Positions 22,633 through 52,017 of a DNA stretch of 64,000 nt are shown piece by piece. Source of the stretch: Candidatus Avelusimicrobium pullarium. Its GTDB lineage: Bacteria > Elusimicrobiota > Elusimicrobia > Elusimicrobiales > Elusimicrobiaceae. The stretch spans positions 1 to 64,000 of the forward strand of contig CALUTQ010000002.1 in assembly GCA_944323745.1 (NCBI GenBank), in the 5' to 3' direction. Every line of letters starts with the position of its first letter. The stretch's first letter is position 1. The position numbers and the translations under genes are program-made. The notes under the pieces are model-generated. The model saw only the letters and a list, made by a program, of their open reading frames with translations. It made no database searches and was not told where the DNA came from.

Positions 22633-22696
22633 CTGCCTTGCCGGTTTTACGGCGCAAATATTAGCTTGAATAAAAATCAAACCATTCGGGGGAATG

Positions 22697-23939: not shown

Positions 23940-24551
23940 ATGGAACATATTGAATTAGGTACCAGATATCCCACATTGGCGTTTATTTCCGGCGGGGCGG
24001 GCCAGGCCGAAGACGGCATTCCGCCGCAGCCGTTTGAAACCTTCTGCTATGACTCAGCCTTGCTGCAAGCCAAGATTGAAAACTTTAACGTCATTCCTTA
24101 CACGTCTGTTTTGCCTAAAGAGCTGTATCAAAACATCGTGCCGGTGGACGCGGTGGCCGACCAGTTTAAACACGGGGCCGTGCTGGAAGTGATTATGGCC
24201 GGCAACGGCGCCAATATCAGCGACCATAAAGCCATTGCCACCGGCTTGGGCGTGTGCTGGGGCAAAGACAAAAAAGGCAATTTGGTCGGCGGCTGGGCGG
24301 CGGAATATGTGGAATATTTTGACACGCCGATTGACGACGAAATTGCCAAAGGCCATTGCGAAATGTGGCTTAACAAATCGTTAAAACACGAGCTGGAAAT
24401 ACGCGATGTGGAAAAACACAGCGAATTTCAGATGTGGCATAACTACATCAACATCACCAAACCTTTTGCCTATTGTCTGACGGTAATGGGTTTCTTGAAC
24501 TTTAAATATGCGCCTTTGGCCGTGGCCAAAGGGGTTAAACCGATGGACTAA
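23940..24551 (+). CDS. aaxB: Pyruvoyl-dependent arginine decarboxylase, AaxB type
   Basis: This 203-residue proenzyme should self-cleave at Thr55-Ser56 (in PYTSVLP) to make the pyruvoyl group, as AaxB of Chlamydia pneumoniae does at Thr-Ser. Family motifs are [27 protein letters not shown] and [11 protein letters not shown]. It converts arginine to agmatine plus CO2, consuming a proton. AAGGAGG precedes the ATG. It lies 19 bp after aaxA and 22 bp before aaxC. From memory the N-terminal third closely matches chlamydial AaxB, which suggests shared ancestry or transfer. Confidence 0.93.
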
Positions 24552-24573
24552 CCTTTTGCCCGGGGGAACGAAT

Positions 24574-26043
24574 ATGGCAGACAAACAAGGACAAGCTTCT
24601 TCGGCCGGCAAAAAACTGGGGGTTATCGGGCTGGCCGCCATTGTAATCAGTTCTATGGTGGGGGGCGGGATATTTTCCCTCCCCCAAAATATGGCCGCTT
24701 CCGCCAGTGCGGGGGCCGTATTGCTGGCTTGGGTGATTACCGGTATCGGCATTTATTTTATTGCCAATACGTTTAGCATCCTTTCGCGCGTAAAGCCGGA
24801 TCTGACGGCCGGCATTTATATGTACGCCCGCGAAGGGTTTGGCCCCTATGCAGGCTTTACCATCGGCTGGGGCTATTGGCTGTGCCAAATATTTGGAAAC
24901 GTGGGCTACGCGGTCATTACAATGGACGCGCTGAATTATTTTTTCCCCCCGTATTTCCAGGGCGGCAACAACCTGTGGTCCATTGTGGGCGGATCGGTGC
25001 TGATATGGGTGTTCAACTTTGTGGTGCTGCGCGGGGTGCGTCAGGCCGCGGTAATGAACATCATCGGCACCATTGGCAAACTGGTGCCGTTGTTTCTGTT
25101 TATTGTCATACTGCTTTTCAGTTTTAAAATGGATCAGTTTGACTTTAACTTCTGGGGCAAAATGGCCGAAGGAGGCAAAACGCTGGGCAGCTTGGGCGCG
25201 CAGTTAAAAAGTACGATGCTGGTAACGCTGTGGGCGTTTATCGGCATAGAAGGGGCGGTGGTAATGTCCAGCAAAGCCAAAAGCCAGTCTGCCGTCAGCC
25301 AAGCCACGTTTTTGGGCTTTGTGGGGTGCCTGGTTATTTACGCACTGCTTTCGCTGCTGCCGTTCGGGTTTTTGACGCAGCAGGAGCTGGCCAGCATTGC
25401 CAACCCTTCCACGGCCGGCGTGTTGGAAAAAGTAGTCGGCCCTTGGGGCGCGTGGGTAATGAATATCGGCTTGCTGATTGCCGTGCTTTCCAGCTGGCTG
25501 GCCTGGACGATGATTTGCGCCGAAATTCCGGCTGCGGCCGCGCAAAACGGCACTTTCCCCAAGCAGTTTGCCAAGGAAAATAAAAACGGCGCACCGTGTG
25601 TATCGCTGTGGGTGACCAGCATTTTAATGCAGCTGGCTATTTTGCTGGTGTATTTTTCCAACAATGCGTGGAACACAATGCTTTCTATCACAGGGGTTAT
25701 GGTGCTGCCGGCCTATATTTTCAGCACGGCCTTTTTGTGGAAGCTGGTGGAAGACGGCGACTACAGCCGCGTTTCGGCCAAAGGCCGCGCGGCGGCACTG
25801 TTTACGTCCATTGTGGGCACCGGCTACGGCATTTGGCTGGTGTACGCGGCCGGACTGAAGTATTTGTTTTTGGCTGTTATTTTTCTGGCGCTTGGCATAC
25901 CGGTGTTTGTCTGGGCGCGCAAACAGCAAAACGACGGCAAAGCCGTGTTTGAAAGCAAAGGCGAGTGTATTGTAATGTGTTTGCTTTTGCTGTGTGCGCT
26001 GATAGCCATATACGTGTTTGCCAGAGGGCTTGTAAGCATTTAA
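24574..26043 (+). CDS. aaxC: Arginine/agmatine antiporter, AaxC type
   Basis: This 489-residue APC-superfamily transporter has about 12 helices. Helix 1 carries the substrate-binding [15 protein letters not shown] (GGG motif), and helix 6 has [14 protein letters not shown]. It should exchange external arginine for agmatine. The start at ATG 24574 is supported by CGGGGGAA; a longer in-frame start at 24508 would overlap aaxB. It is the last gene of the operon and is followed by a terminator. Confidence 0.9.
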
Positions 26044-49244: not shown

Positions 49245-49273
49245 TTGCATTTTTATTTTCATCGTTGTATTAT
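49245..49273 (+). promoter_or_regulatory. Sigma70-type promoter in a gene-free gap
   Basis: TTGCAT, a 17-bp spacer and TATTAT predict a start near 49280. No CDS follows; instead a structured segment ends in a terminator 80 nt later. Confidence 0.65.
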
Positions 49274-49279
49274 AAATAT

Positions 49280-49362
49280 ATAGATTTTCTCCCCCCAGAA
49301 CCTTTCGATTTACCCCCCGAATGGTTCTGAAAAGAGCAGGGCACATCCCCCTGCTCTTTCTT
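49280..49362 (+). ncRNA. Candidate small RNA with C-rich loops
   Basis: From the predicted start the transcript would hold CTCCCCCC, then a hairpin (AGAACC-T-TTCG..CGAA-T-GGTTCT, loop ATTTACCCC), then a strong terminator hairpin (AAAGAGCAGGG..CCCTGCTCTTT) with T tail. The exposed C-runs are complementary to the G-rich Shine-Dalgarno sites seen across this window. The segment has its own promoter and terminator and no reading frame. Size about 80 nt. No known family was recognised. Confidence 0.5.
49330..49362 (+). terminator. Terminator of the candidate small RNA
   Basis: AAAGAGCAGGG-CACATCC-CCCTGCTCTTT (11-bp stem) then CTTT. It could also end transcripts from the ferredoxin side. Confidence 0.8.
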
Positions 49363-49416
49363 TATGTCTTTTTGCCTGGGAAGCACAGAACAAGAAGGCA
49401 GTTTTATCAGACCGCG

Positions 49417-49734
49417 GCGCAGGCTTGCAACCTGCCCAACAAAAACCCCCGCCGAAGCGAGGGTTTTTTTCAAAGCGAGTTGAAACTTACAGAGCAATTG
49501 CGCTGACGGGGCAGGTGCCGGCGCAGGCTTGCAATCTGCCCGACAAAAAACCCCCGCCGAAGCGAGGGTTTCTTTTTCAAAGCGAGTTGAAACTTACAGA
49601 GCAATTGCGCTGACGGGGCAGGTGCCGGCGCAGGCTTGCAATCTGCCCGACAAAAAACCCCCGCCGAAGCGAGGGTTTCTTTTTCAAAGCGAGTTGAAAC
49701 TTACAGAGCAATTGCGCTGACGGGGCAGGTGCCG
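49417..49734. repeat. Triplicated 104-107-bp unit: ferredoxin 3' end plus terminator
   Basis: Copies lie at 49417-49520 (104 bp), 49521-49627 and 49628-49734 (107 bp each, nearly identical). Each holds the last 13 codons of the ferredoxin gene, its stop, and its UUCG-loop terminator. Only the copy nearest the gene is connected to the coding region. Units begin at GCGCAGGC, the same octamer found in the ferredoxin coding sequence at 49735, so microhomology probably drove the duplication. Confidence 0.93.
49652..49675 (-). terminator. Ferredoxin terminator (one of three copies)
   Basis: On the minus strand CCCTCGC-TTCG-GCGGGGG then TTTTTT: a C(UUCG)G tetraloop terminator. Further copies lie near 49545-49568 and 49441-49464. 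Confidence 0.9.
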
Positions 49735-49871
49735 GCGCAGGCGCCGCACTCAATGCATTTGGCCGCGTCAATAGAGCGTTTGCCGTTCTGTTCGGAAATA
49801 GCGCCGACCGGGCAGGCCGATTCGCAGGCGCCGCAGTTAATGCACACTTCGGGGTTCACTTTATAAGCCAT
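49701..49871 (-). CDS. 2[4Fe-4S] ferredoxin, 56 residues
   Basis: A small electron carrier of clostridial type with two complete clusters: C-x2-C-x2-C-x3-C-P in CINCGACESACPVGA, and again in CIECGACAGTCPVSA. It starts MAYKVNPE and has GGAG about 11 nt upstream. In anaerobes such ferredoxins serve pyruvate:ferredoxin oxidoreductase and [FeFe]-hydrogenase; hydE lies 5 kb away. Its 3' end and terminator are tandemly triplicated downstream. Confidence 0.95.
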   Translation of the reverse strand: MAYKVNPEVCINCGACESACPVGAISEQNGKRSIDAAKCIECGACAGTCPVSAIAL

Positions 49872-50040: not shown

Positions 50041-52017
50041 ATGGAAAACAAAAACTATCGCACACTTTTTGATATTAAACCCGGCACCGAAGCAGAAGTG
50101 CAGGATATTCAGTTGGAAGGCGCCCAAGCCGACAAACTGGCGGCTATGGGCTTGGCCAAAGGCCAGCGTATTGTGCGCCACGCGGGCACAAACCCGCTGG
50201 TGGTATCCGTCTGCGGCAGCGAGGTAGCTATCGGCCCCAAAACGGCCCGCAAAATTATTGTCCGCCCTTGTGCTGCCGTACCGGGGACGGACGACTCCTT
50301 CCGCCCCGTTACTTTTTTGATGGCGGGCAACCCCAATGTGGGCAAGAGTTTGCTGTTTTCTCGTCTGACGGGTATCGGCATTTTGTCTTCCAACTTTCCG
50401 GGTACGACGGTGGGCCTCAACCGCGGCACGACCGTGTTTAACGGGGAAACCTATAACATTATTGATATCCCGGGTCTGTACCGCTTGGAAGAAAAATGGC
50501 TGATTGAAGGCAAAAAGCGCGATTTGTTTAAAGAGTTAGATTACGACTTTATCGTGGCCGTGGCGGACGCCTCGCATCTGGAACGTAATTTGTATTTTAC
50601 GTTGGAACTGATGAGCTTGGGCAAACCGGTCATTTTACTGCTCAACAAATTTGACGAAGCCGTGCGCAAAGGTATTGCCATTGATGTGCGCGGACTTTCC
50701 AAACGCCTGGGCATTCCGGTTATTGCCGTGGTGGCCACTACGGGCGAGGGACTGAAACGGCTGGAAGTGACGGTAGACAAAATGGTTCGCCAGAAAAAGG
50801 CCCCCCAGCCGATGCTGTCTATTCCGCAGGCGCCGGAAGAAAAGTGGCGTTTAATCGGCGAGGTTGTTCGCCACGTACAACGCATTCATCATAAACACGC
50901 CAGCTTTACAGAAAAACTGCAGGCCTGGGCCACAAACCCCATCAGCGGGTTGCTTATTGCCTTGGGCGTGCTCTTGCTTTCGTTGGTGGCTATTGTCAAC
51001 ATCGGCGAGCTGATTATCAGCCTGTTGGAGCCTTTGTACGACAACTATTACTTTCCGCTTTTGCAAAAAGCATTTGCCTTTTTGCAGGGCAACCCGCTGT
51101 ATTGGTTCCTGCTGGGCGACGGCGGGCAGCAGTATTTCGGGGTTCTTTCTGACGGTGTAAAAATTGCCCTGATAGATGTTATGCCCTATGTGCTGGTGTT
51201 CTATTCCCTGCTTGGTTTTTTGGGCGATTTGGGGTACCTGCCGCGTTTGGCGGTACTGTTGGACCGCCTGCTGCACCGCATCGGTCTGCACGGGTATGGG
51301 GCTATTCCCATTATGCTGGGTTTTGGCTGCAAAGTGCCTGCTGTAATGGGGGTGCGCGTATTGGAAACCCGCCGCGAACGCATCATTGCCCTGGCGCTTA
51401 TTTTGGTGCTGGCGCCGTGCATTTCCCAAACGGCGATGATTTTGTCTATGCTTTCGCCTTACGGAATAAAATATTTGCTTATCGTGTTTGGTGTATTGTT
51501 TATCAACGGCATTATTGTCGGCACCATTTTAAACAAATTGCTTAAAGGCGAAACGCCGGAAATGTTTATGGAAATTCCGTCTTGGAGCGTGCCGCAGCTG
51601 CGCCCGCTGGCGCGCAAAATTTGGCTGCGTATGAAAGAATATTTAGGCGATGCCCTGCCGCTTATTTTGGCCGGTGTGCTGTTTGTAGACGTAATGCAAT
51701 ACTCCGGCCTGACGGACTGGCTGGCCAAAATATTCCGCTATCCGGTGCATTATTTGCTGAATTTGCCGATGGAAGCCACGCCGGTGCTGTTTTTGGGCTT
51801 TTTGCGTAAGGATGTGTCCATTGCGCTTTTGCAGCCTTTCCATTTGCCGCCGGAACAATTGGCCGTCGCTTGTGTGTTTATGGCTATGTATTTGCCGTGT
51901 GTGGCTACCTTCTTTGTAATGCTGCGCGAAAACGGCCTGAAAGATACGCTTAAAATCGTGGCGCTGACTTTTGCTTTGGCGTTGGTCAGTGCAACGGTGC
52001 TGCGCTTTTTGGTGTGA
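50041..52017 (+). CDS. feoB: FeoA-FeoB fusion ferrous iron transporter
   Basis: This 658-residue protein has an N-terminal FeoA-like SH3 domain (about 5-80, with LAAMGLAKGQRI) fused to FeoB: G1 GNPNVGKS, G3 DIPGLY, G4 NKFD, then gate helices with PYVLVFYSLLGFLGDLGYLPR and GFGCKVPAVMG. It imports Fe2+ across the inner membrane. Start ATG 50041 is set by the promoter and AAGGAAA upstream. The fusion occurs in several anaerobe lineages. No Fur-like palindrome was identified with confidence. Confidence 0.95.
   Translation: MENKNYRTLFDIKPGTEAEVQDIQLEGAQADKLAAMGLAKGQRIVRHAGTNPLVVSVCGSEVAIGPKTARKIIVRPCAAVPGTDDSFRPVTFLMAGNPNVGKSLLFSRLTGIGILSSNFPGTTVGLNRGTTVFNGETYNIIDIPGLYRLEEKWLIEGKKRDLFKELDYDFIVAVADASHLERNLYFTLELMSLGKPVILLLNKFDEAVRKGIAIDVRGLSKRLGIPVIAVVATTGEGLKRLEVTVDKMVRQKKAPQPMLSIPQAPEEKWRLIGEVVRHVQRIHHKHASFTEKLQAWATNPISGLLIALGVLLLSLVAIVNIGELIISLLEPLYDNYYFPLLQKAFAFLQGNPLYWFLLGDGGQQYFGVLSDGVKIALIDVMPYVLVFYSLLGFLGDLGYLPRLAVLLDRLLHRIGLHGYGAIPIMLGFGCKVPAVMGVRVLETRRERIIALALILVLAPCISQTAMILSMLSPYGIKYLLIVFGVLFINGIIVGTILNKLLKGETPEMFMEIPSWSVPQLRPLARKIWLRMKEYLGDALPLILAGVLFVDVMQYSGLTDWLAKIFRYPVHYLLNLPMEATPVLFLGFLRKDVSIALLQPFHLPPEQLAVACVFMAMYLPCVATFFVMLRENGLKDTLKIVALTFALALVSATVLRFLV

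What the first reader, a model, noticed from the sequence alone, without database searches (positions are those of the whole stretch)
49245..49362. Orphan promoter-hairpin-terminator unit: candidate C-rich small RNA
A TTGCAT-17-TATTAT promoter, a two-part hairpin with a CCCC loop, a CTCCCCCC single strand and a strong terminator fit in 118 bp with no reading frame. C-rich loops in small RNAs often pair with Shine-Dalgarno sites, and many genes here have GGGGG-type sites (aaxA, aaxC, the potassium channel).
Basis: partly seen in the sequence, partly recalled or inferred. Interest (0 to 1): 0.65.

Follow-up and report, generated by a model that had tools for sequence, protein, structure and literature searches.

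The report
Conserved C-rich regulatory RNA, Elusimicrobiaceae
The 118-base stretch is a real, conserved small-RNA gene found across a family of gut bacteria, and its repeated C-rich patches match the ribosome-binding sites of the arginine-uptake (aax) genes so consistently that it very probably switches their translation down.

Summary
The window is from Candidatus Avelusimicrobium (Elusimicrobiaceae). Window 49245-49362 carries a promoter, a hairpin with a C-rich loop and a terminator hairpin. Across genera the hairpin stem is replaced with compensating changes while the loop core (A/U)UACCCCC is kept; leader and promoter hexamers are also conserved. No Rfam family matches, and Hfq is absent. 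This is a genuine small RNA with no curated family.

The guess about targets was right for the aax operon (porin AaxA, arginine decarboxylase AaxB, antiporter AaxC). aaxC has a GGGGG Shine-Dalgarno in 38 of 45 readable genomes: all 35 with an intact sRNA, plus 3 whose sRNA locus is not assembled. It is missing in all 7 others, which belong to a clade where the sRNA is degenerate or lost. aaxA orthologues often carry GGGGGUAAA, the loop's complement, almost unique among the gene starts examined. Best explanation: a Hfq-independent antisense repressor of translation, working like mycobacterial 6C/B11 and Listeria LhrC. Expression and repression are untested.

The parts
49245..49250 (+). -35 hexamer TTGCAT
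   Evidence: TTGC(A/T)(A/T) conserved in nearly all of about 50 distinct promoters with a variable spacer
49268..49273 (+). -10 hexamer TATTAT (TATNAT in relatives)
49281..49362 (+). predicted small RNA of about 80 nt; start inferred from the -10 position
   Evidence: fold z = -6.6; covariance model hit 94.8 bits at 49283-49360
49284..49295 (+). single-stranded leader with C-rich motif UUUUCUCCCCCC (UUUAUCCCCC in other species)
   Evidence: conserved in alignments; degenerate in G017, G027 and G073
49296..49329 (+). hairpin 1; loop AUUUACCCCC, whose core (A/U)UACCCCC is kept in nearly all relatives
   Evidence: compensatory stem changes across genera
49331..49359 (+). terminator hairpin; loop carries ACAUCCCCC in most of the genus
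   Evidence: all 11 pairs show double-sided changes; terminator scan
22680..22692 (+). predicted target site in aaxA: AACCATTCGGGGG, 13-nt perfect complement of sRNA CCCCCGAAUGGUU
   Evidence: joint longest complement among 1358 gene starts; orthologues carry GGGGGTAAA
22697..23920 (+). aaxA-like porin gene (OprB, PF04966), predicted target
   Evidence: NCBIfam AaxA model matched below its cut-off
23940..24551 (+). aaxB-like pyruvoyl-dependent arginine decarboxylase; GGGGGTAA Shine-Dalgarno in two relatives only
24562..24566 (+). predicted target site in aaxC: GGGGG Shine-Dalgarno
   Evidence: GGGGG in 38 of 45 readable genomes, missing in the sRNA-degenerate clade
24574..26043 (+). aaxC-like basic amino acid/polyamine antiporter, predicted target
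   Evidence: PF13520, TIGR00905 above cut-off
49701..49871 (-). ferredoxin gene, conserved neighbour (convergent), not part of the sRNA
   Evidence: synteny
50041..52017 (+). FeoA-FeoB iron transporter, conserved neighbour

Best explanation
The locus encodes a trans-acting small RNA of about 80 nt, transcribed from its own sigma-70-type promoter and ended by its own terminator (inferred from sequence and conservation, not measured). It exposes up to three copies of a UUUA(C/U)CCCC-like motif: in the single-stranded leader, in the loop of hairpin 1 and, in most of the genus, in the terminator loop. These pair with G-rich Shine-Dalgarno sites of the aaxABC operon, mainly aaxC (UU(C/U)GGGGG pairing with CCCCCGAA) and aaxA (GGGGGUAAA pairing with UUUACCCCC). 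The predicted effect is to block ribosome binding and lower arginine uptake, decarboxylation and agmatine export. It must do this without Hfq, which the lineage lacks. Shown here: conservation, covariation, complementarity, correlated decay. Inferred: transcription, pairing in the cell, direction of the effect. Other targets must exist, because some species keep the sRNA without aax genes.
For: Conservation: blastn finds it in about 30 of 36 genus genomes; the covariance model in 53 of 66 genus genomes plus three more genera of the family. Covariation: 16 of 22 pairs with double-sided changes, score 0.389 against 0.121 in shuffles, 0 of 500 as high. Promoter hexamers conserved, spacer not. Synteny with ankyrin gene, ferredoxin and FeoAB. 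No Hfq in 41 relatives, controls positive. aaxC: GGGGG in 36 genomes by pattern plus G033 and G013 read directly; the GAGG control pattern hits only G063, G072, G017, G026; G066, G073, G027 also lack GGGGG; the sRNA is absent or degenerate in six of these seven, which lie in one clade. aaxC GGGGG is preceded by C/U in 26 of 27 readings against 26 of 64 other GGGGG genes, and by UU(C/U) in 15 of 27 against 5 of 64. aaxA: GGGGGTAA in 9 of 30 orthologues, aaxB in 2 of 27, and none of the other 59 gene groups among 452 gene starts.
Against: The sRNA-degenerate genomes form one clade, so the joint loss with aaxC GGGGG is one phylogenetic event or few, and Fisher tests overstate it. About half of the aaxA orthologues have an ordinary Shine-Dalgarno although most of those species have the sRNA. 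Twelve or so sRNA-bearing genomes had no aaxC match at the strict cut-off. Pairing conservation with half of E. minutum is not above scrambled motifs. GGGGG can itself serve as a Shine-Dalgarno (with one G-U pair), so part of its conservation may be for translation. No RNA-seq, binding or reporter data.
Confidence: 0.74

Rival explanations
1. A real sRNA whose main job is elsewhere, for example iron sparing (neighbours FeoAB and ferredoxin), with aax only one of many G-rich Shine-Dalgarno targets.
For: Synteny with ferredoxin and FeoAB in several genera; species without aax genes keep the sRNA; E. minutum has 4 genes with GGGGGTAA at the Shine-Dalgarno among the 699 called from half its genome; some G-rich-SD genes of both genomes look redox or Fe-S related.
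Against: Neighbourhood alone says little about sRNA targets; korB, a ferredoxin-dependent enzyme, does not keep GGGGG; no Fur-type site was looked for formally and none was obvious in the promoters.
Confidence: 0.2
2. The C-rich loops bind a protein rather than mRNA, so that the RNA acts as a sponge.
For: Loop kept while the stem changes, repeated motif copies.
Against: Would not explain GGGGGUAAA and UU(C/U)GGGGG at aax start sites nor their absence where the sRNA has decayed.
Confidence: 0.08
3. A cis-acting leader or attenuator, or a 3' UTR element, of a neighbouring gene.
For: A promoter-hairpin-terminator unit looks like an attenuator.
Against: The next gene downstream, ferredoxin, is convergent in the window and most of the genus; right-hand neighbours differ between genera while the RNA stays; it has its own terminator.
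Confidence: 0.03
4. GGGGG at aaxC is just a lineage-specific Shine-Dalgarno of an operon gene, unrelated to the sRNA.
For: GGGGG can pair with the anti-Shine-Dalgarno CCUCC with one G-U; its absence is confined to a single clade.
Against: 38 genomes outside the decay clade keep GGGGG while korB drifts freely; the flanking UU(C/U) matches the sRNA and lacks the A usual before other GGGGG sites; aaxA carries the loop complement as well.
Confidence: 0.18

Closest known systems
6C RNA (RF01066) / mycobacterial B11
   Same: Two hairpins with C-run loops, about 80-100 nt, in a lineage without known Hfq, pairs with G-runs at ribosome-binding sites (PMC10470900; PMC4046766).
   Different: Matches the 6C model with only 23.1 bits against a gathering score of 47; extra single-stranded motif copy upstream; loop A/U-rich before the C-run; a phylum outside Actinobacteria.
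LhrC1-5 of Listeria
   Same: Three redundant C-rich motifs in a loop, a single strand and the terminator loop, pairing with a Shine-Dalgarno, Hfq dispensable (PMC4132741).
   Different: Different sequence and order of elements, multicopy in Listeria, motif UCCC/CU-rich instead of UACCCCC; no Rfam similarity found.
RsaE, FsrA and other C-rich sRNAs of Firmicutes
   Same: C-rich motif blocks translation initiation at Shine-Dalgarno sites (stated in PMC4132741).
   Different: No sequence or structural relationship detected.
aaxABC arginine-agmatine exchange system of Chlamydiaceae
   Same: Predicted target operon has porin, pyruvoyl arginine decarboxylase and antiporter genes side by side (PMC2720952 describes the chlamydial cluster).
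   Different: Proteins match the curated AaxA and arginine decarboxylase models below cut-off; only TIGR00905 (basic amino acid/polyamine antiporter) is above it.

Membership tests
6C RNA (RF01066) | Covariance-model score at or above gathering (47 bits) | tested here: not met
   23.1 bits, E 0.13-0.34
6C RNA (RF01066) | Two adjacent hairpins with C-run loops | tested here: met
   Fold and alignment for the window and most of the genus; the terminator loop lacks the C-run in several relatives
6C RNA (RF01066) | Pairing of C loops with G-runs at ribosome-binding sites | tested here: inconclusive
   Comparative support for aaxA and aaxC; no experiment
LhrC family | Redundant C-rich motifs in loop, single strand and terminator loop | tested here: met
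LhrC family | Sequence or structure homology to LhrC | tested here: inconclusive
   No LhrC hit among Rfam matches, gathering or relaxed; that Rfam holds an LhrC model was not checked
Hfq-dependent trans-acting sRNA | Hfq present in the host | tested here: not met
   PF17209 absent in 41 of 41 genomes, found in 5 control genomes
Trans-acting antisense sRNA (general) | Own promoter, conserved structure, own terminator, no conserved reading frame | tested here: met
Trans-acting antisense sRNA (general) | Expressed transcript of expected size | not testable with these tools
   No RNA data held
Iron-sparing sRNA (RyhB/FsrA type) | Fur-controlled promoter | not tested
   Fur-like and DtxR-like proteins are present; promoters were read but no Fur-site model was applied

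The most novel reading that the evidence does not exclude
An Elusimicrobiaceae-wide, Hfq-independent sRNA whose conserved loop sets a target code: genes under its control carry UU(C/U)GGGGG or GGGGGUAAA in place of the usual AGGAGG Shine-Dalgarno, and the aax operon is a long-standing target in Avelusimicrobium, with target site and regulator decaying together in one clade.
Probability: 0.5. Interest if true: 0.7.

Novelty: new member of a known kind. Interest (0 to 1): 0.6.

Why it matters
The held library yielded no paper on a small RNA in Elusimicrobiota, and Rfam has no family for this one. It is conserved across a bacterial family, has a predicted target operon supported by comparison and a natural decay clade, and works in bacteria without Hfq. 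It adds another lineage where C-rich anti-Shine-Dalgarno RNAs appear to have arisen, and links such an RNA to arginine-agmatine exchange in gut bacteria. E. minutum is, from general knowledge, a cultured relative, so expression can be tested directly.

Tried and rejected
Rfam gathering search: only a tRNA in the window. RNAalifold on the first alignment misplaced hairpin 1, so the structure was given by hand. GGGGGTAAA genome-wide: 35 sites against 12 expected, but mostly inside genes on the opposite strand and none at a Shine-Dalgarno. Two type IV pilin genes topped the naive pairing list, but their GGGGGG lies upstream of a promoter-like element. korB/korC as targets: Shine-Dalgarno drifts between GGGGG and GGAGG. 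Orthologue-wide pairing with half of E. minutum: no better than scrambled motifs. A first aaxC pattern was too loose. Hits of the 18-base core in Parahaliea, Fulvivirga and Spirulina were taken as chance: by my estimate about 7 are expected in 257 billion bases. The gene at C1:785154 has a 13-nt complement of the leader, but its orthologues' upstream DNA could not be fetched.

Full report
Observation. The promoter, leader, hairpin and terminator described are at the stated coordinates. The predicted RNA folds at -31.9 kcal/mol, z = -6.6 against dinucleotide shuffles. The promoter alone would not stand out; its reality rests on conservation. Rfam has no match at gathering score.

Where it is. 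An 18-base core from the loop found 46 stretches in genome contigs. Three are from unrelated organisms and are taken as chance; the rest are titled Elusimicrobia or relatives, including Candidatus Avelusimicrobium excrementipullorum, or are unnamed isolates that share the locus. Blastn finds the unit in about 30 of 36 genus genomes and none convincingly in the other family of the order. A covariance model with the hand-given structure finds 53 of 66 genus genomes, three genomes of genus g12 (one a single contig of 1,643,562 bases, taken to be Elusimicrobium minutum Pei191 from its size), about nine of g15, and one of g16 whose weak score is backed by synteny.

Structure. In 58 distinct sequences, 97.9% of cells pair, 16 of 22 pairs show double-sided changes, and the covariation score of 0.389 exceeds all 500 shuffles (mean 0.121) and all slid versions. 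That alignment was fitted to the structure and so leans toward it, but the hand structure on the unfitted MAFFT alignment of the genus also beats its controls. Between genera the stem of hairpin 1 is largely replaced (GAACC/GGUUC, GACCC/GGGAUC, GACAUC/GAUAUC, GAACUC/GAGUUC), while the loop core (A/U)UACCCCC stays, with one exception reading CCCCA. The leader keeps a UUUA(C/U)CCCC-like motif. Some species add a small 5' hairpin between promoter and leader (read, not tested statistically).

Promoter and neighbourhood. TTGC(A/T)(A/T)-17-TATNAT is conserved while the spacer drifts. The RNA sits between a divergent ankyrin-repeat gene and ferredoxin-FeoAB in most of the genus, in E. minutum and in g16, with a different right-hand neighbour in g15. 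Hfq is absent from all 41 genomes searched, with positive controls.

Targets. The 16S 3' end carries CCUCC and ordinary Shine-Dalgarno sites are AGGAG-like. In the window's own genome the longest perfect complements between the sRNA and any gene start are two 13-mers: one at aaxA (window 22680-22692) and one at a membrane-protein gene. Shuffled sRNAs reached 13 or more in 4 of 200 trials on 300 genes each, so this alone is weak. Orthologues of aaxA gave the key: 9 of 30 carry GGGGGTAA at the Shine-Dalgarno with varying spacing to the start, and two species carry it at aaxB; among 452 gene starts in 61 groups from the held loci it occurs nowhere else. E. minutum, scanned separately, has four such genes of 699, and this genome none of 1358. 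In G084 and G074 the aaxA leader has two G-motifs. aaxC has GGGGG in every readable genome outside one clade: 38 genomes, of which 35 have an intact sRNA and three (G010, G025, G032) an sRNA locus that is missing or cut in the assembly. In seven genomes GGGGG is missing: three have no sRNA (G063, G066, G026; in G026 the ankyrin neighbour was not found next to it), three keep a divergent one with a degraded leader (G017, G027, G073), and one is too incomplete to tell (G072). On a FeoB tree the six that could be placed lie in one supported clade of ten (96/92), so this is correlated decay in one lineage, not many independent events. Outside it, aaxC GGGGG is preceded by C or U in 26 of 27 readings, against 26 of 64 other GGGGG genes of this genome, which fits pairing with CCCCCGAA.

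Controls that failed or limit the claim. korB drifts between GGGGG and GGAGG. The pairing comparison with half of E. minutum was negative. Species without aax keep the sRNA, so aax is not the only target.

Comparison with known families. It works like 6C/B11 and LhrC: C-rich loops against Shine-Dalgarno sites without need of Hfq. It does not meet the 6C model (23.1 bits against 47 required), and no LhrC match appeared. It is best described as a new family of a known kind.

Noticed in passing
G000 genome-wide, e.g. C2:483609 (-), C1:103511 (-): About 40 of 57 type IV pilin-like genes share a near-identical element: TTGACT-like box, T12 tract, then a palindrome TTTTTGATAAATTTTG...ATGAG...CAAAATTTATCAAAAA spanning the start codon, whose right arm encodes the common N-terminus MSKIYQK; no Shine-Dalgarno.
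   Followed up: no
49415-49742: Three tandem 107-base copies (97% alike) of the 3' end of the ferredoxin gene with its terminator.
   Followed up: no
G000 C1:785154-786059 (+): Membrane protein whose Shine-Dalgarno GGGGGGAGAAAAT is a 13-nt complement of the sRNA leader; the next gene also has a GGGGG site. Second candidate target.
   Followed up: partly
L277, L278, L283 (G063, G066, G003): Genomes without the sRNA that keep the ankyrin gene and ferredoxin; in G066 the gap holds an unrelated sequence with repeated ends.
   Followed up: partly
E. minutum G091:C1, first 800 kb: Four genes have GGGGGTAA at the Shine-Dalgarno: candidate targets in a species without an aaxA match.
   Followed up: no
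L297 (G033), aaxC: An in-frame TGA near the start of aaxC in this assembly.
   Followed up: no
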